Source: Mycobacterium basiliense
Lineage (GTDB): Bacteria; Actinomycetota; Actinomycetes; Mycobacteriales; Mycobacteriaceae
NCBI RefSeq assembly: GCF_900292015.1
Contig: NZ_LR130759.1
Span: forward strand, 2,914,001-2,978,000
Length of the DNA: 64,000 nucleotides
Direction of reading: 5' to 3'
Each line of letters begins with the position of its first letter. Position 1 is the stretch's first letter. The notes beneath the pieces are model-generated. The model saw only the letters and a program-made list of their open reading frames with translations, searched no databases and was not told the DNA's origin. Made by a program: the position numbers and the translations under genes. This document shows, piece by piece, positions 40,775 to 56,668 of the stretch.

Positions 40775-42649
40775 ATGAGTGACGGCTCCCCACGGACCTC
40801 CGCGGCTCCCAAAGGCCTGCTGAAGATCGAGGATTGCTTGGCGGCCGACGGCAGTATCGAGCTACCGGCCGGCACCACGCTGATCTCTCTCATCGAGCGC
40901 AATATCGCAAACGTCGGTGATGCGGTGGCGTATCGCTACCTGGACCACACCCGCTCGGCTGAAGGACAGGCCGTCGAGGTGACCTGGACTCAGCTCGGTG
41001 TCCGGTTGCAGGCGATCGGCGCCCACGTGCAGCGGTTCGCAACCGAAGGTGAACGCGTCGCAATTCTGGCACCACAGGGCATCGACTACGTCGCCGGGTT
41101 CTACGCAGCCATCAAAGCGGGCACGACGGCGGTACCCCTGTTCGCCCCCGAATTGCCCGGTCACGCTGAACGCCTCGATACCGCGCTTCGCGATTCGGAG
41201 CCCACGCTCCTGCTCACCACGGCCACGGCGAAAGATGCTGTCGAGGACTTCCTGGCGCATCTGCCCAGCGTGCCAACGCCGCGGGTCCTCGTCATCGACC
41301 AAATACCCGACACAGCGGGGGAGGAGTTCGCCCCGGTCGAACTGGATATCGACGCGGTTTCGCACCTGCAGTACACCTCAGGCTCCACCCGACCGCCGGT
41401 TGGCATCGAGATCACCCACCGCGCGGTCGGTACCAACCTGGTGCAGATGATTCTGTCCATCGACCTACTGGACCGGAACACCCACGGAGTTAGCTGGCTA
41501 CCGCTTTACCACGACATGGGTCTGTCCATGATCGGGTTTCCGGCGGTCTACGGCGGGCACTCCACCCTCATGTCGCCGACTGCCTTTGTCCGTCGCCCGC
41601 AGCGCTGGATTCATGCGTTGGCGGCAGGTTCACGGACCGGCCGCGTCGTCACCGCAGCGCCAAACTTCGCCTACGAGTGGACCGCACAGCGTGGACTGCC
41701 CGCGTCAGGCGACGACATCGACCTTAGCAACGTTGTGCTGATCATCGGTTCCGAACCGGTCAGCATCGACGCGGTCACGACGTTCAACAAGGCGTTCGCG
41801 CCCTACGGATTACCGCGCACTGCCTTCAAACCCGCCTACGGCATCGCCGAAGCGACGCTGCTGGTGGCGACGATCGACCACACCGCCGAGACGACGGTTA
41901 CCTATTTCGACCGGGAACAATTGGGTGCCGGTCACGCGGTACGCGTCGCGGCGGACGCACCCGGCGCCGTCGCGCAGGTATCGTGCGGACACGTCGCCCG
42001 CAGCCTGTGGGCCGTGATCGTCGACCCGGAAACCGGCACCGAATTGCCGGACGGTGAAGTGGGCGAAATCTGGTTACAGGGCAACAATATCGGGCGCGGC
42101 TATTGGGGACGGCCCGAAGAAACCCGCCGGACGTTCGGCGCCAAGCTGCAGCCGCCACGCAGTGCGGGCAGCCGCGCCGAGGGTTCCGATACCGCGGGTG
42201 CCTGGCTGCGGACCGGAGATCTGGGCGTCTACCTCGACGGCGAGCTCTACGTCACCGGGCGGATAGCGGATCTGATCAGGATCGCCGGAAAAGACCACTA
42301 CCCGCAGGATATCGAGGCCACCGTCGCGGAGTCATCGCCACTGGTCCGGCGTGGCTATGTAACGGCTTTCGCGGCGCCGGCCAACGCGCAGTCGGGATCG
42401 GACCAGGCAGATCCTGCGGGCACCAGCCCGAAGCTGGTCGTCGTCGCCGAACGTGCGGCGGGCACCAGCCGCGCCGACCCACAGCCTGGAATCGAGGCCA
42501 TCCGCGCCGCGGTGGCAGAACGCCATGGGTTGCCGGTCGCCGACGTACGTTTCCTACCGGCCGGCGCGATTCCACGCACGACCAGTGGCAAGCTGGCTCG
42601 ACGGGCTTGTCGGGACCAGTATCTCCGCGGCGTCCTGGGAGTGCACTAG
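40775..42649 (+). CDS. fadD31: Fatty acyl-AMP ligase FadD31
   Basis: This is a 624-residue adenylate-forming enzyme. It shows the P-loop-like YTSGSTRPPVGIEITH, SWLPLYHDMGLSMIGFPAVYGG, the A5-type FKPAYGIAEATLLVA, LRTGDLGVYLDGELYVTGRIADLIRIAGKDHYPQDIEATV, and the C-terminal Lys in TTSGKLARRACRDQYL. The YGIAEATLLV and PLYHDMGL blocks and extra loops are typical of FAAL-type FadD enzymes that make acyl-adenylates for PKS/NRPS systems rather than acyl-CoA. It matches Rv1925 (FadD31). It is conserved where the NRPS is absent, so a functional link to the cluster is only possible, not shown. Confidence 0.92.
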   Translation: MSDGSPRTSAAPKGLLKIEDCLAADGSIELPAGTTLISLIERNIANVGDAVAYRYLDHTRSAEGQAVEVTWTQLGVRLQAIGAHVQRFATEGERVAILAPQGIDYVAGFYAAIKAGTTAVPLFAPELPGHAERLDTALRDSEPTLLLTTATAKDAVEDFLAHLPSVPTPRVLVIDQIPDTAGEEFAPVELDIDAVSHLQYTSGSTRPPVGIEITHRAVGTNLVQMILSIDLLDRNTHGVSWLPLYHDMGLSMIGFPAVYGGHSTLMSPTAFVRRPQRWIHALAAGSRTGRVVTAAPNFAYEWTAQRGLPASGDDIDLSNVVLIIGSEPVSIDAVTTFNKAFAPYGLPRTAFKPAYGIAEATLLVATIDHTAETTVTYFDREQLGAGHAVRVAADAPGAVAQVSCGHVARSLWAVIVDPETGTELPDGEVGEIWLQGNNIGRGYWGRPEETRRTFGAKLQPPRSAGSRAEGSDTAGAWLRTGDLGVYLDGELYVTGRIADLIRIAGKDHYPQDIEATVAESSPLVRRGYVTAFAAPANAQSGSDQADPAGTSPKLVVVAERAAGTSRADPQPGIEAIRAAVAERHGLPVADVRFLPAGAIPRTTSGKLARRACRDQYLRGVLGVH

Positions 42650-42663
42650 CCCGCTCTGCAGCT

Positions 42664-43275
42664 TCAGGGCTCGGGGTCTTCCGGAACGTCGGTGTAATGC
42701 AGGGTGTATCCGTCAACGGAGAATGTGAAGCCCTTGGCGGTCGTTTCGCTGACACACGACACGCCGACCGACTTCTGAAAGTTGCACCTGAAGCCAGCAG
42801 CATCGAGAACCTGAACGAACGGTAGGGCCTTGGCCGCTCCCGAACCCGGCGAAAATTCTCCTTTCTCCAGGACCGCGAAGTGCGCTTCACCGAGAGTGCC
42901 GACAACGATCGTATTGGGCACGGCCACAGTCCCATCTGCACCGCGGACGGTCTCGGGCGCGCCCGGGATGTTCAAGGTTGACCCACGCGTGGGCTGACAA
43001 CCGGCTTGGGTATGAGGCACGATCGCGCAACGCCATCGACCGCTGGGTGATGCGAAGTAATAGCCGCCGTGGGCGCCGGATTCCACGAAGTAGTCAGCGG
43101 CATTGGCCAGGTGCAAATTGTTGGTCGGGGTGGGAAGCAATGAAGTTGTGGCGGTCACGCCAGTTGGTACCGGGGGCTCGCCGGTGTGCACACCCGGTCC
43201 AGGGCCGCATGCGGCGGTGGTCGCCGTCAACAGGATCGCCGCAGACCATTGCGGCACGGTGCCGTTCAATCTCAT
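42664..43275 (-). CDS. Probable lipoprotein or exported protein
   Basis: This 203-residue protein begins MRLNGTVPQWSAAILLTATTAACGPGPG, a signal peptide with a possible but weak lipobox (TAAC, Cys 23). A Thr/Pro linker follows, then a Cys-containing domain: GGYYFASPSGRWRCAIVPHTQAGCQPTRG and FRCNFQKSVGVSCVSETTAKGFTFSVDGYTLHY. The four Cys are spaced as in two disulfides. It resembles small secreted mycobacterial proteins but I cannot name a family. It lies convergent to fadD31 (14-bp gap) and 277 bp upstream-side of the NRPS stop. Confidence 0.72.
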   Translation of the reverse strand: MRLNGTVPQWSAAILLTATTAACGPGPGVHTGEPPVPTGVTATTSLLPTPTNNLHLANAADYFVESGAHGGYYFASPSGRWRCAIVPHTQAGCQPTRGSTLNIPGAPETVRGADGTVAVPNTIVVGTLGEAHFAVLEKGEFSPGSGAAKALPFVQVLDAAGFRCNFQKSVGVSCVSETTAKGFTFSVDGYTLHYTDVPEDPEP

Positions 43276-43552
43276 AGCACCATGTTTACCGTTGCCGCGA
43301 CCCCTCGCGGCGATGGGTCACCGGCACTTGTCCCGCCGAGTCGCCGCCGGCACAGCATGGTCTATCGCGGTGCAATGCCGGTCGCTTCAGGGAATGATCC
43401 TGGCCCGCATAGTTTTCGACGCCGCACTGGTGAGTAGTGGAGCCAACATCGTCATGGCGGACAGGGACCGTAGCGGGAGCTGGCCCGCGGGCCGCCATTC
43501 CAACACGCAACTCGGCGTCACCGAACCATGCGCGGGGCTGGAGCCTCGCCGG

Positions 43553-46500
43553 TCAGTCTAATGCTGCCCGGATTTGGTCACCGAATGTCTTCAGGGCGGC
43601 GGGGTTGAGCATTTCTTCGTGTGCGCAGTTGACCGGGTATTCGTTGACTTCGCCGGCAACATATTTTCGCCAGCATTGCTGAAGTTCTGCGTCGCTGCTG
43701 GCTGGTCGTGCCGAGAAGACGACCATGCGGCCTGCAAAGATATCGGGTTGATGTTGGGCGTTCAGTTGCACGTTAGTGTTGGCATTGGTAACCATCACCT
43801 GCACCAGTTGGCGTGACGGCAGCGCGGATTCTGCGTCTAATTCTTGCTCTACTAGCGTCTGTGCTTGCGAGTAGGTCAGTGGGCGGCAATATTGTTCGGC
43901 GGCGACGCCGAGGACTTGCAGGATCGCCTCTAAGACGTCGGATTCGGTCACCACAGCGGTAGTGGATGCATCCGGGATAAGGATCGGGTCGAGAGCTATC
44001 AAGCGCGCCACAGTGGCGCCGCGAACTTGCAGCTCAACGGCAAGCTGGTGGGCGGTGACCCCGCCAAAAGACCAACCGAGAAGCTGATAGGGACCTTCGG
44101 GATCGTAGGTTTGAATGGCGTTGGCGTAGATTCTCGCAAGTTCCCGAACCGACTCGGGCTGCGCTTCCTGGCCGTTGTGCATCTGTTGAAGACCGATGAC
44201 GGGGCAATCCAGGTAAGGACCGAGATTTCGGTAGGCCCAACTGATGCCGCCCCCGGGGGGCAGGCAGAAGAGTGGTAGCCCGGAACCAGGTTGGAGCACC
44301 TCAAGGGGCACGATCTCAACGGATCGGTCGGGTGCGTTTAGCTTTTCGGCTAAACCATCGATGGTGGGTGCCTCGAAGAGGACGCGTGCGGCCAAGTCGG
44401 TATCCAGTGTAGCGTTGATCGCCGCGACCACTCGCATCGCCGAGAGCGAATCGCCACCGAGATCGAAAAACGAGTCGTCGACCCCGACCCGGTCCAGGCC
44501 GAGCACCTGGGCAAATATGCCGGCAAGGGTTTCTTCGACCGGACTGACCGGAGCCCGATACCGTTGGGCATCGCCGTACTGAACGGCCGGCAAAGCCCGC
44601 ACATCCAGCTTGCCGTTAACCGTCAACGGCAACTCCGCAATAGCGATCAACGCCGCCGGCACCATGTAGGGGGGCAACTGAGCGGCCAATGCCGCACGCA
44701 ACTCGACCGGGTCGGCCCCACCGGTGAAATAACCCACCAGACGCGGATCGCCCGGATGATCATGGCGGGCCACCACCACGGCCTGGTCCACCCCCGCCAA
44801 CCGGCCCAACGCCGCGCTCACCTCACCCGGCTCAATACGGAACCCACGGACCTTGACCTGGCCATCCGCACGACCCACATACCGCAGCTGGCCATCCGCA
44901 CCCCACCACACCAGATCCCCGGTGCGATACATCCGCGTTCCCGACGCCCCACCGAACGGACACGCCACAAACCGCGACCCGGTCAAACCCGCCCGACGCC
45001 AATACCCAAGGCCAACACCCCCACCCGCCACATACAACTCCCCAACCACACCAACAGGCACCGGCCGCAACCACCCATCCAAGACGAACAGTGCCGCGCC
45101 GGCCACCGGCGAACCGATCGGAGTGATTCCCAACCCCGGCGTCAGCGGTGGGCTCATCGCCGCATAGATCGTGGCTTCGGTGGGGCCGTAGGCGTTGATC
45201 ATCACCCGCCCGGGCGCCCACTGGTCCACCAGCGCCTCCGGGCATACCTCACCACCGACCACCAGCATGACCGACTCCAAGCCCTGCGGGGACACCGCTG
45301 CGGCCGCCGACGGGGTCAGGGTAAAGACCTCGACATGTTCGGCCAGCAGCAGGGCATGCAGCTCGTCCGGGGATTTTGCGGTGTGTTCGGGTACCACGAC
45401 CAGCCGCCCACCCGACAGCAGTGCACCCCAGATCTCCCACACCGAGACATCAAAGGAATACGAATGCCATTGCGTCCACACGCGGCCGGGGGAGAACAGC
45501 ATCGCTGCCGATTCAGCGTCCAAACCGCCCAGCAGTTGGGTGACGTTGTGATGCGTGATGCCTACACCTTTAGGCGTGCCAGTGCTACCCGAGGTGTAGA
45601 TGATGTATGCAAGATCCCCAGCCGCCGGCCCGGGCAGGCCCACACCGGACACGGTGTCGATCCCAGGCTCGTCGATATCGATGACCGTCAGGTCGTAGTC
45701 GTCCAGACGAGCGCGCAGAGCACCGGTCGTGACCGCAGCAATTGGCGCAGAATCGTTGAGCATAAACGCGATCCGGGCATCGGGATGCATCGGATCAATC
45801 GGCAAATAGCCCGCACCGGTTTTCAACACCGCCAGGATCGCAACGATCCCACCATGCGTCCGGGGCAACAGCAGCGCCACCAACTCGCCCGGACCCACCC
45901 CCACCCCGGCCAAAACCCGCGCCAGTTGACTGCTTTCGGCGTCCAACTTCGCGTAGGTCAACGACACCTCACCATCAGTTACCGCGATCGCCTCCGGAGT
46001 GCGCGCCACCTGCGCACCAAACAACACCGGAACCGACCCCCCCACCGAGACCGGCTCCGCTAACACACCCCGATTACCCCAGACATCAAGACACTCGTGC
46101 TCTCTGGAATCAAGCAGATCGATTAATCCCAACCGCCGCCCCGGCTCGGCAGCCATCACCCTCAACAACGCCTGCAACCGGGCGATCAACGAGTCAATGG
46201 CGGTCTTGTCGAATACGGCGGTGTCGTATTCGACTCGAAAACCGAGTTGAGGCCCGGGTAGGACGAACACGGTAAGGGGGTAGTGGGTGGTTTCGAAGCT
46301 AGTGATGTCGGTAATGGCCAGCTGGTCTGGGCACAGGGCAGCCAGATCATTGAAGGGATAGTTCTCGTAGACGAACAGAGCGTCAAAGAGCCGAGAGTGT
46401 CCGCTTGCGCGGTGAATGTCGCCGAGCGGCAGGTAGTGATACTCCAGGGTGTCGGTGTGAAACTGCTGGAGTTGGTCGATCAGTTCTGTGGTGGTGACGG

Positions 46501-49500
46501 CGGCTGTCAGCCGTGCTCGCACCGCCACCGTGTTGATCAACAGACCCACCATCGACTGAGCCCCGGCTAGCTCGGCGGACCGCCCCGACACGGTGGCACC
46601 AAATGCGACGTCCTGATTTCGGGTCAGCCCGGCCAGCAGCTGTGCAAAGGCGGCCTGCACCACGATGTTGAGGGTGCTGTGATGAGAGCGGGCCAAGTCA
46701 TTGAGGGCGCTGGTGGCCGCATTGGACAAGGTCCAAAATTGCACTGCGTGGTCGGCGGAAACGTTTGGATCGAGTGAGCCCACCAGGGTGGGGCTGTGAA
46801 AATCAGTAAACATCTCACGCCAGGCAATCAAGGCTTTGCCGCGGTCTTGATCGGCGAGCCAGGCCAGGTAATTGCGATACGGAACAGGTGGTGGAAGTAT
46901 CCCGTTGCCGTACACGTTGAAGACGTCACCCAAGATGATCGACATCGACCAGCCATCGCAGACCACATGATGATTCGTCCAGATCAACCGGTACTGGTCG
47001 GGTGCAGTCTTGACCAGAGCTGCCCGGACCGGGGAGCTGTTGCTGATATCGCGAAGGGCTTCGCGTTCTGCAGCGCGTATCTCCTCGATGTCGTGCTGGG
47101 CGCCGTGGGTAAGGTCGATAACATCCCAGGGCACTACCGGGTCGTCCATGATGATTTGGACGGGCTCCTCGAAGCCCGCATACGCGATTCGCACCGCGAG
47201 ATTGGGACTGCGCTTGATGACGGTCTGCACCGCTTCATGTAGGCGCAGTTGGTCCAGCTGGCCGGCGAGCCCGATTTCAACCTGGACCACATAGGCCTGA
47301 CCCGCAGTGGAGGCACCGCTGTGAAACAGCAGTCCCTGTTGCAATGGGGTCAACGGCAGCAGGTCTTTGACCTTGTGGCTGCGTTCAAGGTGGTCGATCT
47401 GGCTTTGCGTCAGCGATAATCCCAGCAGGTCCGAGGGCGTCAATCCGCCCCCACCAGCATCCACATAAGCGCTGATTGCGGTTAAGGCTTCAAACCACAA
47501 TCCGGCCAACCTGCCAAGTGCACTACTGTCGAACACCGACGACGCCCAGGTCCATTCCGCATGCAGTTGGGGTCCGGCGTCGGTATCGATAGTGACTGCG
47601 TTCAGTGCCACCGTATGGGTCAACGGCATGTCCGCCAGCACCCGGGCGGTCTCTGCCAACGTAAGACCCGCACCGGTGAGATGCCACCCCCCGGCTCTTG
47701 CAGATCGGCTGAAGCCCTCGAAGCGACCAAGATAGTTGAATGCGATCAGCGGGTCGGCCGCGACGAGGTCAACCTCATGGTTTTGATAGCGCAGCAGACC
47801 ATAGGTCAAGCCCGGAGGAACCGCGCGTAGTTGCTCCTTGAGTTTCTTGACTACCGTCCCCACGATGTCGTGGCCGGCCGACCACTGCGGCCACGCTATC
47901 GGCCCTACCTTCAACGCCACCGGGTATTTCGTGGTGAACCAGCCCACCGCGGCCGACAAATCCAGGCCAGGGGATAGCTCGTCGTGGCGCCCGTGACCCT
48001 CCACGTCCACGCCGATCACCGCACTGGGCTCGGCCAATAACTCCTGCCACGCCACCGCGAAAGCGATCAACAAGATGTCGTGGACGCCGACGTGGAACGC
48101 GGCTGGCACCCGGGTTATCAACGCCTGAGTTGTCGGGGCGTCGAGTACCACCGACAGGTGCCCGGCGCTGGCAGCGCGATCAACCTGCTGATTGGGTGCG
48201 CTGACCACAGCCGGGACCGCCGCGATCTGACGCCAAACCGCTAACTGGGCGGTTACCGCTGGGTCATAGGCATAGTCGACCAACATCGACGCCCACTGCC
48301 TAAACGAGCTACCGGTGGCGGGCAGACTAATCGCGCCGCGGCGCTGGTGCTGGGCCCACGCGGAGTTGAGGTCATCGATCAATACCCGCCACGAGACCCC
48401 ATCCACCGCCAGATGATGGATGGCCAACACCAACTGAGCCGTCGATGAAGCCCACACCGCGCTGACCATCACGCCAGCCGCAGGATCCAACCGAGACAAC
48501 GCCCCAGCCAGTACGTCCCCGGACATGACCGCCACCTGCTGCACCGACTCACGCGCGTCCACGTAACCGGCTGGTCGGGCTTCCAGCGCCCACCCTCCAT
48601 CGCTGTCTCTACCCACCTGCAGCCGCAACATCGCGTGCCGATCCAGCAACGCCTGAACCAACACGACTACATCAGCCTCGTCGACGCCGGCCGGCCCCTG
48701 CACCAACACCGTCTGATGTAATCCCGCCACCAAACCAGCCACGCTGTCGAACCACCGCATGATCGGTGTGAGCACGACCGATCCCACACCGTCGTCATCG
48801 CGACCGCCTAGACCAGCACCGAGATTCTCGACAACGCGGGCCAGCGCAGCTACGTCTTGGTGGCGGAAAATGTCCCGCGTCCTGCACGCCAACCCCGCAG
48901 CACGCGCGCCCGCGACCACTCGCATCGCCGAGAGCGAATCACCACCGAGATCGAAAAACGAGTCGTCGACCCCGACCCGGTCCAGGCCGAGCACCTGGGC
49001 AAATATGCCGGCAAGGGTTTCTTCGACCGGACTGACCGGAGCCCGATACCGTTGGGCATCGCCGTACTGAACGGCCGGCAAAGCCCGCACATCCAGCTTG
49101 CCGTTAACCGTCAACGGCAACTCCGCAATAGCGATCAACGCCGCCGGCACCATGTAGGGGGGCAACTGAGCGGCCAATGCCGCACGCAACTCGACCGGGT
49201 CGGCCCCACCGGTGAAATAACCCACCAGACGCGGATCGCCCGGATGATCATGGCGGGCCACCACCACGGCCTGGTCCACCCCCGCCAACCGGCCCAACGC
49301 CGCGCTCACCTCACCCGGCTCAATACGGAACCCACGGACCTTGACCTGGCCATCCGCACGACCCACATACCGCAGCTGGCCATCCGCACCCCACCACACC
49401 AGATCCCCGGTGCGATACATCCGCGTTCCCGACGCCCCACCGAACGGACACGCCACAAACCGCGACCCGGTCAAACCCGCCCGACGCCAATACCCAAGGC

Positions 49501-51976
49501 CAACACCCCCACCCGCCACATACAACTCCCCAACCACACCAACAGGCACCGGCCGCAACCACCCATCAAGGACAAAAAACCCCAGACTGGACAGTGGGGT
49601 GCCAATCGGACTGACGTCGGCGGCGGTGTCGGACCCAATGATCTCGCGCCACGAAGCGTGCACCGTGGTCTCGGTGGTGCCATACAGATTGAACAGACGA
49701 GGATGCCGCGGATGCTGACTCATCCAGGGCGTCAAGCGGTGCGCCTGCAGTGCCTCACCGGCGAACAGCACCGCATCAAGTTGCAGCCGATGGCTCAACT
49801 CATCAGCAGCCTCCGCCGCGGCCTGTAGCGCGTAGAACGCCGAGGGCGTCTGGCAGAGCACGTTGGCCCGCTCGTCAACCAGCAATCCCAACAGCTCGTC
49901 CGGGGATTTTGCGGTGTGTTCGGGTACCACGACCAGCCGCCCACCCGACAGCAGTGCACCCCAGATCTCCCACACCGAGACATCAAAGGAATACGAATGC
50001 CATTGCGTCCACACGCGGCCGGGGGAGAACAGCATCGCTGCCGATTCAGCGTCCAAACCGCCCAGCAGTTGGGTGACGTTGTGATGCGTGATGCCTACAC
50101 CTTTAGGCGTGCCAGTGCTACCCGAGGTGTAGATGATGTATGCAAGATCCCCAGCCGCCGGCCCGGGCAGGCCCACACCGGACACGGTGTCGATCCCAGG
50201 CTCGTCGATATCGATGACCGTCAGGTCGTAGTCGTCCAGACGAGCGCGCAGAGCACCGGTCGTGACCGCAGCAATTGGCGCAGAATCGTTGAGCATAAAC
50301 GCGATCCGGGCATCGGGATGCATCGGATCAATCGGCAAATAGCCCGCACCGGTTTTCAACACCGCCAGGATCGCAACGATCCCACCATGCGTCCGGGGCA
50401 ACAGCAGCGCCACCAACTCGCCCGGACCCACCCCCACCCCGGCCAAAACCCGCGCCAGTTGACTGCTTTCGGCGTCCAACTTCGCGTAGGTCAACGACAC
50501 CTCACCATCAGTTACCGCGATCGCCTCCGGAGTGCGCGCCACCTGCGCACCAAACAACACCGGAACCGACCCCCCCACCGAGACCGGCTCCGCTAACACA
50601 CCCCGATTACCCCAGACATCAAGACACTCGTGCTCTCTGGAATCAAGCAGATCGATTAATCCCAACCGCCGCCCCGGCTCGGCAGCCATCACCCTCAACA
50701 ACGCCTGCAACCGGGCGGCTAGATGTGAGACGTCGGAATCACCAAACGGCCCACCACTTCCCACGGTATGTAGGAAAAGCCGGCCAGCATCTTTGGTGAA
50801 GACCATGCCGAAGTGCTCGCCCTGGGCAAAACTTAGGATCGTGACTGTGCTGGGAGCGTCGCCGAACGGCGCGAGGGTGACCGACGGCATGAAGTTGACG
50901 CTGACCGTGCCGGCTGAGTTATCGGTACCTTGTCGGGAATTGCTATTTCTCAGCACATGCATGGGGAAGCGTTGATGCCGTATGGCTTGTCTTATCTGTG
51001 ACTCCACATGCTGACAAAAACCGCCAATCTCAGCGTCTGGCACCGCCGTCAACACTAACGGCACAGTGCCGGACAGCATCCCAGGAATCGTCATCAGTTG
51101 TGGGTTTGTCCGCCTGCTGACCGGGAAATCGAGGATCACCTGCGGACCGCCACGTCTCTGATGCACCAACAGCGCACACGCCGCGGTAATCACTGACGAG
51201 CGACGAACACCGACCATCTGGGCAAGCTGCTGGGCACGGTCCACCACCGAACGATCCAGCTCGACCGAAACCGAAGTCGCCGAGGAAGCATGGCAGCCTT
51301 GTGCGCGGGCGAAGCTGTAATCCACTACGCTGTCGAGGTTCTCGTTCCAATAGGTCAGGTCTTCTCGATAGTCATCGGATTGTTCGTACGCCGATTCGCC
51401 GGCAACAAGACTCTCCAACGAGCCGAAAAATGAGGGCGCAACCGGAGTTTCAGTACTCAATGCGGAATACACGGCGGCGATCCGATTGACAAGGAGGGCG
51501 TACCCGAACCCGTCAACGATCACATGGTGGATACACACAAACAGATAGAACTCATCCGAAGTCGTTTGAAAAAGCGCAAACTTGAACAGCGGGCCGGCCC
51601 ACGGCATCGGCGCCCGATGCAGCACCAACCCCCGCCGAGTGGCTTCCCGAACCGGATCCGCGCATCTTCTCAGATCGTGGAATGGAACCTCGAGATCGGG
51701 GTAGTCCACGGCCTGCTGCACAACGTACCCATCAACCTCAATAATTGCGGCTCTTAGAGGTTCAGCTTCAGCAACCACCTGTCGAATTGCCCGACTCAAC
51801 AGGTCAGGGATCACCGATCCGCCGATGACCGCGAACCCGCTATTGTGCCACTCATCCGGTGCTCTGCCGATCTCCTGTGAAAACCAGATATCTAGCTGCC
51901 CCCGCGTCAGCGCAAACCCTCGTTCTGCCGGCCCGAGTGCGCGTCCCGAATTGCTCTGAATTGAACTATGATCCAC
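43553..51976 (-). CDS. Two-module NRPS: C-A-T-E-C-A-T-TE
   Basis: This 2807-residue synthetase starts at GTG 51976. Order by residue: starter condensation domain about 20-440 (HHVIVDGFG); A1 about 465-965 ([29 protein letters not shown]); T1 with phosphopantetheine Ser1014 ([10 protein letters not shown]); epimerase about 1060-1510 ([22 protein letters not shown]); second C about 1530-1965 ([11 protein letters not shown]), expected to accept a D-donor; A2 about 1965-2460; T2 with Ser2510; thioesterase about 2565-2807 (GWSFGG, Ser2636). All core motifs look intact. An N-terminal C domain suggests a pre-loaded acyl starter, and the TE suggests release as acid or ring. By-eye specificity codes are DVWCLALVHK for A1 and DVWTVGAIYK for A2, neither a clear match. 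Large parts of A1-T1 and A2-T2 are near-identical DNA. Confidence 0.95.
44423..45079. repeat. NRPS direct repeat B, copy in module 2
   Basis: These 657 bp (A2 C-terminal part plus most of T2) repeat at 48911-49567 at a constant offset of 4488 bp. By eye I found one difference (44453 against 48941). Confidence 0.9.
45359..46184. repeat. NRPS direct repeat A, copy in module 2
   Basis: These 826 bp (C-A linker and the first half of A2) repeat at 49892-50717 at a constant offset of 4533 bp, with no difference noticed by eye. Between repeats B and A lies the unique 279-bp cassette 45080-45358. Confidence 0.9.
48911..49567. repeat. NRPS direct repeat B, copy in module 1
   Basis: Partner of 44423-45079. 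It covers the A1 C-terminal subdomain and T1. The boundary at 49567 falls exactly where the unique module-1 cassette begins. Confidence 0.9.
49892..50717. repeat. NRPS direct repeat A, copy in module 1
   Basis: Partner of 45359-46184. It covers the linker and first half of A1. The unique module-1 cassette between the repeats is 49568-49891 (324 bp, 45 bp longer than in module 2, so still in frame). Confidence 0.9.
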
Positions 51977-52111
51977 GGTGATCTCGCGGCCGCGTCTACC
52001 GAATGGGCATCCGGGCTGGAATGTCCGCGCAAGGCGTCGGCCAGCCAGGGCAGCTGGATGCAGCTCCAGTTGCGGCGGTTGGACCGTTCGAATCCCTGCT
52101 CACGCCAGCCA

Positions 52112-52336
52112 TCACTCGGACTGATCCGACGCTAGCCTGTCGCGCAAACTCTTCGGTCGGATATCGGGCCAGTTCCGCTCGATGTAGTCCAGACACTCGG
52201 CGCGCGTGCTCTCGGCGTGCACCACCCGCCAACCGGCCGGCACATCGGCGAACACTGGCCACAAACTGTGCTGCTCCTCATCATTGACCAAGACCAGGAA
52301 CGTCCCATCGTCGTCGTCAAACGGATTGGTACTCAC
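52112..52336 (-). CDS. MbtH-like NRPS chaperone
   Basis: This 74-residue protein with a GTG start carries the full MbtH signature: [19 protein letters not shown] (NxExQxSxWP and PxGW), then [19 protein letters not shown]. MbtH proteins bind A domains and are needed for folding or activity. It lies 12 bp after the acyl-CoA dehydrogenase-like gene and 135 bp before the NRPS, all in the same direction, so it is the cognate partner. A trailing C-terminal LASDQSE is normal. Confidence 0.96.
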
Positions 52337-52348
52337 CAGCGCTCCATC

Positions 52349-53536
52349 TCACTCATTTGTCGTCCGTTCTGCGGTCGTCCGGGGTGTTCTTCCGGTGGGT
52401 TTCGATTGCTGCTCGTGGTATCGCTTGACTAGTTCACGTGCGATCACGAGCCGCATCGCCTCGTCGGTACCCCCGGCTACCGAGCCGCACAGAAAATCGA
52501 GGGCACACTGGTAAAGGCGCGCTTCTTCCTGAAGTCCGTAGCTGCCACACAATTTCATCGCTTCAATACATGCGTCCAAGCCCGACTGCATCGCATACAG
52601 CTTGAGCGCGGAGGATTCGAGATCGATATCCTCGCCTCGTAGGTAGCGGTCCAGCGTCGTATGAGCCAATGCGATTGTCATCTGCCTGCTCACCGCCACA
52701 TCGGTAATCCGGCGCTGGATGTGCTGGTGGGTGGCTATTGGCTTGCCACGCACCTGACGACTGATCGCGAAGGCGAGCATCTGGTCGAGTACCTGGTCCA
52801 AGATGCCGATCGTGCCGAATCCGCTGAGCATCCGTTCGGGGCCGATAACGCCACGGAGCATTTCGCGACCACGGCCGGCGCCGATCACATGCGTCTGGGG
52901 GATACACACGTTGTCGAATGTGATCGAGCCGACCGGCGAGGTGCGCATGCCGGCCGGCGCCAGCGGGGGCGAGCAGGTGACGCCGGTCCATGACGGTTCC
53001 ACGAGCACCGCCGACATACCGCCGATAGCGTCGTCAGCGCACCAAACGAGGATCACGTCGGCGATCGGCGCGTTGGTGATATGCCATTTGGCACCGTCGA
53101 GGTGGATACCGCCATGGCCTCGGTGCAGCCGGGTCTCGGGATGAAAGGCATCACTGCCGCCGTGCGGCTCGGTTGTCGCGAACGCCAAGATGGTCTTACC
53201 CGAAACCGCGGGCGTCAAGTAGGCTTCACGCACCTCGGGGTCAGCGTATTGCTCGAGTATCGGAATGGTCAGAATCGCCTGAACCCCCGTCGAAATATTG
53301 AACCCGAGGTGGCAGGACCCGCTCGTCAGGCCGTGTGTTGCCGCGGCGTAGGTCAACACCTGTCGCTTCATCTGTCCGCCGAGCGCAGCACCGAATAGAC
53401 CCGCGTCGGCCACATCGCACCATAGGTCGTACGGGAATTGTCGCTGTGCCCAACGTTCGGCTAGGGCGGCACGATGCCGTACACCGATCGCGTGGTACTG
53501 ATCCCTAATTATCTCGTAGTCGGCCAGCCACTCCAA
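52349..53536 (-). CDS. Acyl-CoA dehydrogenase-like flavoprotein
   Basis: The start is TTG 53536 with GGAGGG 9 bases upstream; an in-frame TGA just before it rules out a longer product. It is 395 residues. Family blocks are FGAALGGQMKRQVLTYAAATHGLTSG, ILAFATTEPHGGSDA (FAD/substrate loop), GAKWHITNAPIADVILVWC, GPERMLSGFGTIG, MKLCGSYGLQEEARLYQCALDFL and SVAGGTDEAMRLVIARELV. The position of the usual catalytic Glu (EGT in MCAD) is G in AGGTDE, so the base must be elsewhere or the activity altered. It heads the dehydrogenase-mbtH-NRPS operon, suggesting desaturation of the acyl or aminoacyl intermediate. Confidence 0.9.
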   Translation of the reverse strand: MEWLADYEIIRDQYHAIGVRHRAALAERWAQRQFPYDLWCDVADAGLFGAALGGQMKRQVLTYAAATHGLTSGSCHLGFNISTGVQAILTIPILEQYADPEVREAYLTPAVSGKTILAFATTEPHGGSDAFHPETRLHRGHGGIHLDGAKWHITNAPIADVILVWCADDAIGGMSAVLVEPSWTGVTCSPPLAPAGMRTSPVGSITFDNVCIPQTHVIGAGRGREMLRGVIGPERMLSGFGTIGILDQVLDQMLAFAISRQVRGKPIATHQHIQRRITDVAVSRQMTIALAHTTLDRYLRGEDIDLESSALKLYAMQSGLDACIEAMKLCGSYGLQEEARLYQCALDFLCGSVAGGTDEAMRLVIARELVKRYHEQQSKPTGRTPRTTAERTTNE

Positions 53537-53973
53537 TTGACATCGCCCTCCTCAGTTTTCGCCCGCGCGTTGGGGGCGCAATGGACAAAGGAGCCACAGG
53601 TCCGGTCGACTGAGCGCTCGAACCAACCGGCGTCGGGGATCGAACCCGCGCGGGCCGCAGCGTCGATCGGGCCATCACGGTCGGTTGGTGAGACGCCCGC
53701 GGTGACCAACGTCTTTGCGACGGCACTGGCCTTGGCCGCGACCGTGAATTCAGGGCACACGGGAGCTCGCATCAAGTACGGCATTGAGGGCTGCATGCCG
53801 ACCGTGACATGTCGCGAGTGCAGAAAAAGAATGGTAGCCAGCACCCCGGAAGGTCCCGGATGCGAACAGTCAGCTACCGCATCGACGAGCCGCACGACAT
53901 ATCCGTCGGCTCTACCCAAGTACGGCGACACCCTCAAATCTTCCTCGCTCAATTCGCGGGCCATCGGCAGCAC
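53509..53973 (-). CDS. Unknown ORF overlapping the dehydrogenase start
   Basis: This 154-codon frame (MLPMARELSEEDLRVSPYL, ending GDVNWSGWPTTR) has GC-rich third positions as expected for real coding in this genome. Its last 28 bases overlap the start of the dehydrogenase gene, a common translational-coupling layout. I recognise no domain. The opposite strand also has a long open frame here, so coding by either strand is not certain. If real, it is the first gene of the NRPS operon. Confidence 0.45.
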   Translation of the reverse strand: MLPMARELSEEDLRVSPYLGRADGYVVRLVDAVADCSHPGPSGVLATILFLHSRHVTVGMQPSMPYLMRAPVCPEFTVAAKASAVAKTLVTAGVSPTDRDGPIDAAARAGSIPDAGWFERSVDRTCGSFVHCAPNARAKTEEGDVNWSGWPTTR

Positions 53974-54803
53974 CTACTATCGCGGCCAGCCGCCGAGGCG
54001 CTAGGTTCGTCGATGACCACAATATCCTTTGGCCCGCAGCTGCGGAACATTTTACTTCAAAATTTCAAAATTAATCGAGATTGGCCCACCGACACATCAT
54101 CCGACTTGGCCCAGTCGAAATTCATATTTAGGTGAATTTCGACTGGGTCAATGGTAGTGCCAGCGATAGCTTCCTGAGCCCTTCCGGTTTTGATGGCTCC
54201 CCTTGTCTGGGATCGATGGCGATCGTTTGAAGGCAACATCACCCTCGGCACCCACCGGATTAGACGTGCCTGCGCTGCCCCAACCGTCCCAGCTTGCTTG
54301 TGCCGCTACTGCCCTTGGCCGCGGGCGGCAATGGCCACAGCGGAACACAACAGCAAATGTCGTCCTGCGCCGAGTTGCCGCTATTACCTCATTAAACTCG
54401 ACTATCGGGCAACTACATCGACATGCTGGCAACGCATCGAGCGATCGCGAATCGAGCGCGCTCTCGCCGCGACCACGCGGCTGAGACAGGACTCGCGGCG
54501 ACGGCCCCCATCCGCGGCTGCGCCCGGCGTTGGTCGACCTCGCCGTTACCTGAGGCAATCTGGCAGTCGGCACGCCGAGCCAACAATTGACCTATGCGCG
54601 GATGTGCCGAGTATTTTCCGGCCAGGCAACCAAGCGTGCTACGTGGGAATTCTTGGTCGGTCAACACAGCCCCTTGTCTCTATATCAGAGGACATGGTTA
54701 AATCAGACGCCGTAACGGAAGTCCGCTAAGCAATCCCCACTCATCGGCGGGATTTTGGACGATCCATGCCGGGATTCGACTAACTTCCCGAGAGGAGCAG
54801 ACA
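53974..54803. other. Gap between the NRPS operon and the diiron oxidase gene
   Basis: About 830 bp between divergent transcription units, with parts AT-richer than the flanks. It contains the long hairpin at 54106-54151. A 26-residue stretch near 54300-54390 (LPLAAGGNGHSGTQQ) looks like a fragment of a PE/PPE-type gene but is too short to call. Otherwise I see nothing; the promoters for both sides should lie here. Confidence 0.45.
54106..54151. repeat. Long inverted repeat (19-bp arms, 8-nt loop)
   Basis: TTGGCCCAGTCGAAATTCA (54106-54124) and TGAATTTCGACTGGGTCAA (54133-54151) pair along all 19 positions with one G-U type pair, around the loop TATTTAGG. There is no U-tract. It could be a transcription-blocking hairpin, a regulator site, or the fused ends of a small mobile element. 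Confidence 0.8.
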
Positions 54804-55460
54804 ATGGGCAGGTTCGATCGACTGCTTGAAGCAACCACTGAGGCGTACAACGACAGAATTAACAATCATCCGGGATTGCCTCTAGTGCTAGAGGGTCGAA
54901 TGAAACGCGAACATTACATTCGTTATCTTCGAGAAATATATCATGTCGTTTGCCACACGACTCGAATTTATTCACTTGCAGGCGCCCGGCTGGGAAACGA
55001 AGACCGGGAACTCAGGGACTGGTTTTTTGAAGAATCGCACGAAGAGAACAACCACGATCTGATGTGCATCAGTGATTTGCGGGCCTACGGTGAGGATCCC
55101 GAGCGCGTACTAGCGGAGCCTCCGATGGCTGGGGCGTGGGGGATCATCGCGCAGGGCTACTATTTGGCCACGTACGGCAACCCCACGGGGATACTCGGTG
55201 TCGCCAGCGTCACTGAGGCTGTGGGCGCGACCCTCACCGGAACCGTGGCGCAGGCGCTGGCCGAACAATACGGGTACAAGCCCGAACAGACCACCTTCCT
55301 CAGGGCTCACTCGGGATTCGATGTCAAACACATCGAGGACGTGAAGAACGCGGTGAATACCCTTGTCCGCGATTCTGACTTCGACGCAATCATTCAAGGT
55401 CGCCGGATGACTATCCATTTTTACTCACAAATGTTCGACGACATCCTGGCCGCGTGTTAG
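54804..55460 (+). CDS. Heme-oxygenase-like diiron oxidase (HDO)
   Basis: This is a 218-residue all-helical protein. Ligand spacing fits the HDO superfamily (Chlamydia CADD, UndA, BesC, SznF): E44 and H51 in REIYHVVCHT, E138 in ASVTEAV, and H169/D173/H176 in AHSGFDVKHIED. This reproduces the CADD pattern E-x6-H, E, H-x3-D-x2-H exactly. Family members use O2 and two irons for C-C cleavage, N-oxidation or related reactions on amino or fatty acids. The first half is AT-richer than neighbouring genes. AGAGGAG precedes the ATG. It diverges from the NRPS operon and probably makes a precursor or tailors the product. Confidence 0.85.
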   Translation: MGRFDRLLEATTEAYNDRINNHPGLPLVLEGRMKREHYIRYLREIYHVVCHTTRIYSLAGARLGNEDRELRDWFFEESHEENNHDLMCISDLRAYGEDPERVLAEPPMAGAWGIIAQGYYLATYGNPTGILGVASVTEAVGATLTGTVAQALAEQYGYKPEQTTFLRAHSGFDVKHIEDVKNAVNTLVRDSDFDAIIQGRRMTIHFYSQMFDDILAAC

Positions 55461-55710
55461 CCGGCCCGCCCTGTCTGATTGACTGAGGCGATTATCTGAT
55501 GTCTGGGCGCGGGGCTTCGGCCTGAATTGGCACGTCTCTGCGAGGCTTTCCCCCCGCCCGCAACGAACTCACCCGAACCGAGTTCGCCTCATCGTGGACC
55601 ACCGCCCACCACGCTCAGGCGGCAGTGCGGCGGCACCACCAAACCGCTCCGCCGCACGCCGGTTCGGGCCGCGGCGGATGGCACGCAATCCGTCGCTGCG
55701 CTATCCCGAT

Positions 55711-56190
55711 CTAGGGTACCCAGATCATGAGGTCTTCCATGCCGTTGTTCATGGCAACGATGGTCGGCGCCGGACCGGTGACATCGAAGTAGATCTTGCC
55801 GCTGGCTTGCGCACCCTGGGGGATGGTGGCGCCGCTAATCGTGTTCGGACCTGCCACTTGCCACAACACCCGGTAGTTGATGCCGTCGCTGGTGCGCGCG
55901 TTGAATTGCGAGACGGCCGGTGTGACGGTGCCCTGGATCGCATTGACGGTCGCGGTGGCTTCCCACAGCTGACCGGCCACCGGATAGCCGGGGACAGCGT
56001 CGGTGCTGGATTTGAGATCGCTGACCTTCCAGCCCAGAACGACTTGGCCAACGCTGTCGGTCATAGTCAACTCGCTACCAAATTTGCCGGTGACCGGATA
56101 GGCGCCAAACGCGATCGACGCACTGATGGTCGCGATCGTCGCCAGTGCCACAACTGTTACAGCTGTCTTTATGATCGTGGTGAGCTTCAT
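55711..56190 (-). CDS. mpt63: Immunogenic secreted protein MPT63
   Basis: The start is ATG 56190 with TGGAGG just upstream. The protein is 159 residues: signal peptide MKLTTIIKTAVTVVALATIA... cleaved near FGA-YPVTG, then the MPT63 beta-sandwich (GSELTMTDSVGQVVLGWKVSDLKSS, PGYPVAGQLWEATATVNAI, NYRVLWQVAGPNTISGATIPQG, IVAMNNGMEDLMIW). It is highly similar to my recollection of Rv1926c. It is the right-hand synteny anchor: in H37Rv fadD31 and mpt63 are adjacent, so everything between 42.65 and 55.7 kb is extra here. Confidence 0.96.
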   Translation of the reverse strand: MKLTTIIKTAVTVVALATIATISASIAFGAYPVTGKFGSELTMTDSVGQVVLGWKVSDLKSSTDAVPGYPVAGQLWEATATVNAIQGTVTPAVSQFNARTSDGINYRVLWQVAGPNTISGATIPQGAQASGKIYFDVTGPAPTIVAMNNGMEDLMIWVP

Positions 56191-56668
56191 TGGTCCTCCA
56201 CTAATCGTTCGAATCTGCCTACGCGATAACTCTAAGCTGCAAACGGCCCGGTTGCGGCCAGAAATTTCTTGCGCAGCGCTGCATTGACCCGGTGATCTAA
56301 CCCCTTTGGTTCGGGCCAGTTCCGGTGCGAGTGCGATGCCCGAAGTCGGGCGCGGCGGACGCGATTTTTGGCATGGCGAACGCATATGCCCCAGGGGGCG
56401 GTCCACAAGTTGGCGAGGACGAACGCGGCCAGACACGGGCAAAGGGCCGATCGGAACCGGTGCCCTTTGATGCTGCCACGGAAGCCTCGCAAGCCACGGT
56501 GAGACCGCCCCTCAACAACTCTCATATCCACTGGCTCGGAAGCTGGGACCTCGTCGCCAACGCCCGGTTCATGGGGTAGGAAGGACCGAAGGGCTCGAAC
56601 CCGGGCGGATGGCCGTCGAACGACCCTGACAGACAACAGTTCACCACACAGCCATGCAGGAGGCACGT
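56191..56668. other. Gap between mpt63 and the sulfatase
   Basis: About 480 bp with two divergent promoters. Short ORFs on both strands (for example 56325-56579) lack motifs. A TTCGA-containing stretch near 56595 resembles a tRNA T-loop on the minus strand but no tRNA folds around it. Nothing else seen. Confidence 0.4.

What the first reader, a model, noticed from the sequence alone, without database searches (positions are those of the whole stretch)
43553..55460. Biosynthetic cluster inserted between fadD31 and mpt63, predicted to make an oxidised acyl-dipeptide
Gene order shows an NRPS (C-A-T-E-C-A-T-TE), its MbtH partner, an acyl-CoA dehydrogenase-like flavoprotein and an unknown ORF in one operon, with a divergent HDO diiron oxidase. 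fadD31 and mpt63 are adjacent in M. tuberculosis (recalled), so this block is extra. The domain set predicts an acyl starter, an epimerised first residue, a second residue and TE release. The dehydrogenase could desaturate a carrier- or CoA-bound intermediate and the HDO could oxidise an amino or fatty acid. This differs from the Rv0096-Rv0101 isonitrile lipopeptide cluster, which has its own ACP and thioesterase and a reductase release.
Basis: partly seen in the sequence, partly recalled or inferred. Interest (0 to 1): 0.88.

Follow-up and report, generated by a model that had tools for sequence, protein, structure and literature searches.

The report
Movable mycobacterial lipopeptide gene cluster
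A compact block of about five genes in a lung-associated mycobacterium, found again at a different chromosomal place in one other mycobacterium, looks like a working assembly line for a small oxidised, probably fatty-acyl, dipeptide of unknown structure.

Summary
At 43553-55460 lie a 2807-aa NRPS (C-A-T-E-C-A-T-TE, core motifs intact), MbtH, an acyl-CoA-dehydrogenase-like flavoprotein (ACAD), a small fast-evolving ORF and a divergent haem-oxygenase-like diiron oxidase (HDO). The block sits between a lipoprotein gene and mpt63; in the genome whose length matches M. spongiae at most 163 bp separate those genes. One other genome (G887, same genus) carries the four enzymes and a loosely similar small ORF at another locus, which is empty in the window genome. 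The enzymes are under purifying selection (dN/dS 0.08-0.14). This defines the unit and includes the HDO. C1 is closest to lipo-initiating starter C domains; C2 to domains such as SrfA-C and TycB. An N-acyl D-X1-L-X2 product released by TE, with one thioester oxidation (ACAD) and one diiron oxidation (HDO), is the best reading; substrates and order are inferred. The two A-domain flanks are letter-identical DNA within each species but about 25% different between species, whereas the specificity islands are conserved. Similar homogenisation occurs in other NRPS stretches of this genome. A new variant of a known kind; product unknown.

The parts
43553..51976 (-). NRPS, 2807 aa, C1-A1-T1-E-C2-A2-T2-TE
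   Evidence: Pfam/NCBIfam; intact motifs; ortholog in G887, 81% aa identity, dN/dS 0.14
50642..51919 (-). C1, starter-type condensation domain
   Evidence: Nearest PDB chains 7c1h (RzmA starter C, 1.3e-39) and 4jn3 (CDA-PSI C1, 1.7e-29). In 19 of 19 related loci looked at (L111-L129, best hits in other genomes) the matching C domain begins within 75 codons of an upstream in-frame stop; no internal domain was run as a control for this
49568..49891 (-). A1 specificity island (aa 696-803); code read as DVWCLALVHK (DVWSLALVHK in G887)
   Evidence: reference positions of the code recalled
45080..45358 (-). A2 specificity island (aa 2207-2299); code DVWTVGAIYK in both species
   Evidence: reference positions recalled
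49892..50717 (-). A1 N-terminal homogenised tract, 826 nt identical to 45359-46184
45359..46184 (-). A2 N-terminal homogenised tract, 826 nt, copy of the A1 tract
48942..49567 (-). A1-T1 C-terminal homogenised tract, 626 nt
44454..45079 (-). A2-T2 C-terminal homogenised tract, 626 nt, copy of the A1-T1 tract
47477..48790 (-). epimerisation domain (HHLAVDG, EGHGR intact); boundaries approximate
46091..47365 (-). C2; nearest PDB SrfA-C, McyB, TycB
   Evidence: the query also held the linker and about 80 residues of A2
43556..44275 (-). C-terminal thioesterase (GWSFGG; His in NC[A/T]HEE)
52112..52336 (-). MbtH-like protein, 74 aa
   Evidence: PF03621 4.1e-31; 85% identity in G887, dN/dS 0.08
52349..53536 (-). 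ACAD-like flavoprotein, 395 aa, TTG start preceded by GAGGAGGG; putative base E234 in PERM
   Evidence: Pfam; NCBIfam best PigA 158 bits, below its cut-off of 500; E234 aligned with the Glu of IVD/PigA-type chains, Gly at the MCAD position; 86% identity in G887
53509..53973 (-). orfX, 154 aa, no family; overlaps the ACAD start by 28 nt; fast-evolving
   Evidence: no plasmid match
54106..54151 (+). hairpin, 19-nt arms (95% complementary), between orfX and HDO; not found in the matching stretch of G887
54804..55460 (+). HDO (PF14518), 218 aa; ligand set E81 H84 E138 H169 D173 H176
   Evidence: 88% identity in G887, dN/dS 0.09

Best explanation
This is a compact, transferable NRPS cassette of 11.9 kb (NRPS, MbtH, ACAD, probably orfX, and divergent HDO). 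It makes an oxidised N-acyl dipeptide. Shown: gene content, intact domains, selection, and that the same unit sits at two unrelated chromosomal sites in two species. Inferred from families: the starter C domain takes an acyl group from acyl-CoA or acyl-ACP (no ACP or ligase gene is in the shared unit) and joins it to residue 1; E turns it to D; C2 joins residue 2; TE releases an acid or a cyclic product. Inferred, less sure: the ACAD puts an alpha,beta double bond into a thioester-bound intermediate (acyl or aminoacyl). The HDO uses O2 at a diiron site to desaturate, cleave or oxygenate an amino acid or the released peptide, whose free carboxylate could bind iron as in MboA.
For: Domain and motif set. 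C1 nearest to the RzmA and CDA starter C domains, C2 to SrfA-C, McyB and TycB. RzmA-Cs takes acyl-CoA in vitro and its cluster has no ACP or ligase gene (PMC7804268, passages). Cassette in G887 at 81-88% aa identity, dN/dS 0.08-0.14. DNA matches between the two regions lie between 43550 and 55455 only, with none beyond either end in the 22 kb and 31 kb compared. Both sites have empty counterparts. All six HDO ligands invariant in 9 of 9 aligned sequences, same order as in MboA (PMC13185094, passages). ACAD base at the IVD/PigA position.
Against: No product, expression or enzyme data. A-domain codes match no recalled signature well. The acyl group could be as short as acetyl, as in rhizomide. 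The ACAD profile score is best for PigA (prolyl-PCP dehydrogenase), which would point to an aminoacyl, not an acyl, substrate, though far below the cut-off. The HDO is transcribed apart from the operon, across a gap of 830 bp. The spacing D-x2-H of the last two HDO ligands differs from D-x4-H in MboA.
Confidence: 0.62

Rival explanations
1. The ACAD works on a carrier-bound amino acid (PigA/RedW-like, or AzsF-like in azaserine), so the hallmark is a dehydro- or otherwise oxidised residue; the acyl cap is short or trivial.
For: Best NCBIfam scores are PigA (158) and prolyl-PCP dehydrogenase (131), above the acyl-CoA enzymes (101 and lower). The azaserine cluster also holds an NRPS, an ACAD (AzsF) and an iron-containing redox enzyme (AzsE), and AzsT and AzsF convert a carrier-bound substrate there (PMC10445470, passages, abstract and section headings).
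Against: All scores are far below the family cut-offs (500 and 650). Among PDB chains generic acyl-CoA and isovaleryl-CoA dehydrogenases score as well as PigA (120, 120, 118 against 117 bits). No stand-alone carrier protein or ligase gene is among the genes of the unit.
Confidence: 0.25
2. The product is a metal-binding small peptide (metallophore) of the same ecological kind as isonitrile lipopeptides.
For: Isonitrile lipopeptides are used by mycobacteria for metal transport (PMC11361433, passages); HDOs take part in chalkophore synthesis (review PMC13108848, passages).
Against: No transporter, receptor or regulator gene is among the genes of the unit; no Rfam match at gathering threshold in 43200-56200. 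Metal-regulator binding sites were not searched for.
Confidence: 0.12
3. The HDO is a bystander, and only NRPS-MbtH-ACAD form the pathway.
For: Divergent orientation, 830 bp gap; lowest GC of the genes of the block (0.55).
Against: The HDO accompanies the cassette at two different loci in two species, the shared DNA ends 5 bases before its stop codon's end, and it is under purifying selection. It was found in only 2 of 396 genomes of the genus at E <= 1e-10.
Confidence: 0.06
4. The cluster is decaying and makes nothing.
For: No transcription data are available.
Against: The four enzyme frames are open in both species, the catalytic motifs checked are intact, dN/dS 0.08-0.14.
Confidence: 0.04

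Closest known systems
Starter-C lipopeptide NRPSs (rhizomide RzmA, CDA-PSI)
   Same: N-terminal C domain most similar to RzmA-Cs (7c1h) and CDA-PSI C1 (4jn3/5du9); no ACP or ligase gene in the RzmA cluster either
   Different: Only two modules; ACAD plus HDO partners; C1 donor untested
Azaserine (azs) cluster
   Same: NRPS with ACAD (AzsF) and an iron-containing redox enzyme (AzsE) in one cluster
   Different: azs has 21 genes, with hydrazinoacetate genes, a Cy-A-CP NRPS and a P450; none of these is among the genes of this cassette
Mangotoxin MboA and other HDOs (CADD, 3dde)
   Same: Same family by profile (3dde 1.6e-58, CADD 5e-10, MboA 4e-7); same ligand order; D85 sits next to H84 as D90 does next to H89 in MboA
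   Different: Only 25-29% identity to the seven proteobacterial relatives aligned and remote from MboA and CADD. MboA works with a dedicated partner, MboB; no extra redox-partner gene is among the genes of this unit, though MboB itself was not searched for. The Tyr consumed in CADD (recalled) falls on Leu25
Isonitrile lipopeptide cluster (Rv0096-Rv0101 type)
   Same: Small mycobacterial lipopeptide NRPS
   Different: TE release, no ACP, ligase or extra thioesterase in the unit (gene content of the known cluster recalled and from the finding)
Mycobacterial plasmid NRPSs (M. intracellulare, M. avium)
   Same: One collinear match over query residues 23-2522 at 52% identity
   Different: No ACAD match at E <= 1e-40 in any plasmid; no Mycobacterium among the genera shown for 22 of the 23 plasmid records with an HDO match
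A-domain recombination and gene conversion in NRPSs
   Same: Exchange of the pocket-bearing part of an A domain while the rest stays, and homogenising conversion, are discussed in PMC9205934 (passages)
   Different: Here the flanks are identical within each of two species and the pocket islands stay apart

Membership tests
Lipo-initiating NRPS | N-terminal C domain related to starter C domains | tested here: met
   C2 run as a control gives other best hits
Lipo-initiating NRPS | Transfers an acyl group in vitro or in the product | not testable with these tools
   No product known
HDO superfamily | Haem-oxygenase-like fold family by profile | tested here: met
   PF14518 4.9e-23; 3dde
HDO superfamily | 3 His / 3 carboxylate ligand set | tested here: met
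   E81 H84 E138 H169 D173 H176 invariant in 9 of 9; order as in MboA, last spacing two residues shorter
HDO superfamily | Confident predicted or solved structure | tested here: inconclusive
   Single-sequence AlphaFold2 model mean pLDDT 37, unusable
CADD-type pABA synthase | Self-sacrificed tyrosine | tested here: not met
   Aligned position is Leu25 (that CADD uses Tyr27 is recalled); TIGR04305 20 bits against cut-off 200
Prolyl-PCP dehydrogenase (PigA/RedW) | Curated family cut-off | tested here: not met
   158 of 500 and 131 of 650 bits
Acyl-CoA dehydrogenase fold | Three Pfam domains and a Glu at a known base position | tested here: met
   which Glu is the base in the relatives is recalled
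Isonitrile lipopeptide cluster | Own ACP, ligase, thioesterase and reductase release | tested here: not met
   Shared unit has none; NRPS ends in TE
Azaserine-type cluster | Hydrazinoacetate genes and Cy-A-CP NRPS | tested here: not met
   Absent from the unit; gene list

The most novel reading that the evidence does not exclude
The HDO acts, MboA-like, on the free carboxylate end of the released N-acyl dipeptide, desaturating residue 2 (to an alkene or, with a cell's redox partner, an alkyne), while the ACAD makes the acyl end alpha,beta-unsaturated. The product would be a small mycobacterial lipodipeptide with two reactive groups, made by a cassette that moves as a unit.
Probability: 0.1. 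Interest if true: 0.82.

Novelty: new variant of a known kind. Interest (0 to 1): 0.5.

Why it matters
It defines, from two independent chromosomal placements, the minimal gene set of a mycobacterial NRPS pathway with two different oxidases for which I found no description, so the product can be looked for with a clear prediction (mass lost on NRPS deletion, shifted by 2 Da or more on ACAD or HDO deletion). It places an HDO remote from all characterised ones beside an NRPS. It also gives a clean case of concerted evolution in which A-domain flanks are kept identical while substrate pockets are kept apart, which bears on how assembly lines change specificity.

Tried and rejected
HDO as a close relative of a characterised enzyme: rejected; the best solved relative (3dde) is labelled as of unknown function, and CADD and MboA are remote. 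HDO in related genomes by a genome-contig scan: none. That scan needs exact 8-residue words; G887's HDO carries three of the six used yet did not appear, so its genome is probably not in that collection or was left out. ACAD scan of genome contigs: 2 distant hits, 29% and 25%, not followed. ACAD in 198 genus genomes at E <= 1e-60 and 298 order genomes at E <= 1e-50: own genome only; G887 was in neither sample, since its ACAD would have matched. HDO in 396 genomes of the phylum: 12 with a match at E <= 0.001 including the window's own, the best other one 6e-11, 24%, not followed. The plasmid HDO relatives (23 records, at most 30% identity) mostly belong to another operon; 7 loci read.

Lipoprotein P0004 as a synteny anchor: weaker relatives (44-52%) in 7 other genomes lie away from the other window genes, so mpt63 was used instead. 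fadD31 in relatives: 11 stretches fetched, two of them short, only one with the sulfatase nearby, so these do not serve as empty sites. Terminal repeats: shared words at the two ends no longer than 10 nt (chance not simulated), none of 9 nt or more in G887. GC-biased conversion as the cause of high dS: no consistent GC3 shift of the tracts. Structure search of the HDO: not made, model too poor. Horizontal transfer against vertical descent with relocation: not resolved; cluster dS 0.70-1.02, four housekeeping genes 0.61-0.89. The hairpin upstream of HDO is not in the matching stretch of G887 and was dropped as a candidate part of the mechanism.
Full report
What is there. The window is G000:C1:2914001-2978000 of a single 5,607,630-bp contig. 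That length equals the genome of Mycobacterium basiliense 901379 given in PMC6331445 (passages and section 20). The name is an inference from that match. The block 43553-55460 holds, on the minus strand, orfX (53509-53973), ACAD (52349-53536), MbtH (52112-52336) and the NRPS (43553-51976), and on the plus strand the HDO (54804-55460). The ACAD starts at TTG behind GAGGAGGG and overlaps orfX by 28 nt. The NRPS has three C-type domains, two A, two T and a TE, with HHxxxDG three times, GGDSL twice, EGHGR in the domain read as E, and GWSFGG in the TE.

Where it sits. fadD31 (40775-42649) is followed by a lipoprotein-like gene (42664-43275), then the block, then mpt63 (55711-56190). mpt63 was sought in 198 genomes of the genus: 116, own included, have a match at E <= 1e-30. 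I chose 10 of these from other genomes, most of them among the best-scoring, and took 18 kb around each. In 4, fadD31 is within 0.4 kb of mpt63. In 1 (L102) 2.1 kb lies between, which I did not examine further. In 1 (L105, contig length 5,581,157 bp, which equals M. spongiae in PMC11361433, passages) the lipoprotein gene lies between, and at most 163 bp separate it from mpt63. In 4 no fadD31 match appears. None of the 10 stretches shows a match above 90 bits to a gene of the block. No shared word longer than 10 nt was found at the two ends of the block.

A second copy elsewhere. The HDO was found in 2 of 396 genomes of the genus at E <= 1e-10: the window's own and G887, 88% identical. An earlier sample of 198 gave the window's own and one 24% match, G059. 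In G887 (6,453,310 bp, unnamed) the set is present: NRPS 81%, MbtH 85%, ACAD 86%, HDO 88% aa identity over aligned residues; dN/dS 0.14, 0.08, 0.13, 0.09. DNA matches between window 38001-60000 and 31 kb of G887 run from 43550 (three bases outside the NRPS stop) to 55455 (five bases inside the HDO end) and no further; within that span 52029-52107 and 53636-54615 give none. In G887 the block lies between PPE-like genes and an unidentified 318-aa ORF followed by scpA-, rluB-, cmk- and der-like genes (names recalled from their sequences). The same region of the window genome has these flanks without the block. So each species has the cassette where the other, or a relative, has an empty site. Its dS (0.70-1.02) is close to that of scpA, rluB, cmk and der (0.61-0.89), so transfer at about the time of species separation and descent with relocation both fit.

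orfX. The two species have open frames of 151 and 140 codons in the same place, alignable at 43 of 122 positions (score 74, best of 300 shuffles 10). Codon-position GC is not clearly coding (0.63/0.56/0.70 in the window, 0.70/0.57/0.64 in G887). No Pfam, NCBIfam or plasmid match. It may be a fast-evolving small protein or conserved leader DNA; I leave this open.

NRPS logic. C1 is closest among solved structures to the RzmA starter C domain (7c1h, 1.3e-39) and CDA-PSI C1 (1.7e-29), then EntF (1.4e-24). C2, run as a control in a stretch that also held the linker and about 80 residues of A2, is closest to SrfA-C, McyB and TycB. That SrfA-C and TycB follow an upstream E domain is recalled. In 19 of 19 C1 relatives in other genomes that I looked at (L111-L129, from the best hits), the matching domain starts within 75 codons of an in-frame stop, so it is N-terminal there too; no internal domain was run as a control for this. 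The best C1 match in 198 genus genomes outside the own one is 54% identical. In the RzmA paper the starter C takes acyl-CoA in vitro and the cluster has no ACP or ligase gene; the authors do not exclude acyl-ACP (PMC7804268, passages). The A1 code reads DVWCLALVHK (DVWSLALVHK in G887) and A2 DVWTVGAIYK in both. Positions are placed by recalled motifs. A1 has the motif style recalled for Thr/Ser-type pockets and A2 that of aromatic pockets, but neither is a confident call.

ACAD. Three ACAD domains. E234 aligns with the catalytic Glu of isovaleryl-CoA dehydrogenase and PigA-type chains, while the MCAD-type base position is Gly (which Glu is catalytic is recalled). By NCBIfam the best profile is PigA (158 bits, cut-off 500), then prolyl-PCP dehydrogenase (131, cut-off 650). 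By PDB, generic acyl-CoA enzymes score the same as PigA. So the substrate, acyl or aminoacyl thioester, is open.

HDO. E81, H84, E138, H169, D173 and H176 are invariant in 9 of 9 aligned sequences and follow the order of MboA's E86, H89, E143, H172, D176 and H181, with a spacing two residues shorter at the end (PMC13185094, passages). D85 sits where MboA has D90, an extra iron ligand in one chain of its crystal. A profile of the nine finds 3dde (1.6e-58, labelled as of unknown function), CADD (5e-10) and MboA (4e-7). The Tyr consumed in CADD (recalled) is replaced by Leu25. MboA makes an alkyne on a peptide's C-terminal residue and needs MboB for the second step (abstract and passages); I did not search for MboB. 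In plasmids the nearest relatives (23 records, at most 30% identity) occur in 6 of 7 loci read in an operon thermostable hemolysin - AMP-binding protein - HDO - SDR. In one of these the HDO lies within the gene annotated as AMP-binding protein.

Homogenised A-domain flanks. Within the window's NRPS, 826 nt before and 626 nt after the pocket region are letter-identical between module 1 and module 2. In G887 the tracts are 826 and 663 nt, also identical. Between the species the same tracts are only 74-75% identical (dS 1.2-2.2), while the two pocket islands are 85-87% identical (dS 0.36-0.44) and the rest 80-83% (dS 0.53-0.67). GC3 shows no consistent shift of the tracts. In the window genome the next best match to the 826-nt tract is 68%. 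I read this as repeated conversion between the two modules with the pockets left apart, plus replacement by more divergent sequence in at least one lineage. It is not special to this cluster: of 6 further stretches of the same genome that match the tract, 4 (two of them overlapping parts of one region, so 3 regions) show exact repeats of 100 nt or more, up to 2631 nt, and 2 show none. The M. basiliense paper notes repetitive NRPS genes as a mapping problem, so read-level checks are needed.

Known or new. The paper on M. basiliense counts 22 NRPS/PKS-type clusters and lists them in a supplement that I did not open, so the locus is probably listed there as a prediction. Searches for HDO with mycobacteria or NRPS (3 papers, 1 listed; none; 17, 15 listed) and for mycobacterial NRPS surveys (1,896, 20 listed; 40, 15 listed) showed no description of this cluster in the titles and abstract starts listed. 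That covers only the open-licence library and the listed part. NRPS, ACAD and an iron-containing redox enzyme do occur together in the azaserine cluster (PMC10445470), so the combination is not without precedent. The verdict is a new variant of a known kind.

Noticed in passing
G000:C1:3572001-3591000 (L140), 4495001-4508000 (L141), 1184001-1223500 (L142, L143): Other stretches of this genome that match the NRPS A-domain tract carry exact direct repeats up to 2631 nt (L140) and 1804 nt (L141), so intragenic homogenisation is common here; L144 and L145 have none of 100 nt or more.
   Followed up: partly
window 49892-50717 / 45359-46184 and 48942-49567 / 44454-45079: Synonymous divergence from G887 is about 3 to 6 times higher in the homogenised tracts than in the pocket islands beside them.
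   Followed up: partly
L017, L019, L020, L021, L022, L023: Recurrent proteobacterial operon: thermostable hemolysin - AMP-binding protein - HDO - SDR, with the HDO lying inside the gene annotated as AMP-binding protein in L021; its function is unknown to me.
   Followed up: no
window 54106-54151: 19-nt inverted repeat with 8-nt loop between orfX and HDO; no Rfam match at gathering threshold and not in the matching stretch of G887.
   Followed up: partly
window 54560-54803: A short block upstream of HDO (TCAGACGCCGTAACG in the window) is nearly the same in G887 and may be an operator or promoter.
   Followed up: no
L105 12586-13170: The lipoprotein-like gene between fadD31 and mpt63 is shared (66%) with the genome whose length matches M. 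spongiae; weaker relatives (44-52%) in 7 other genomes lie away from the other window genes.
   Followed up: no
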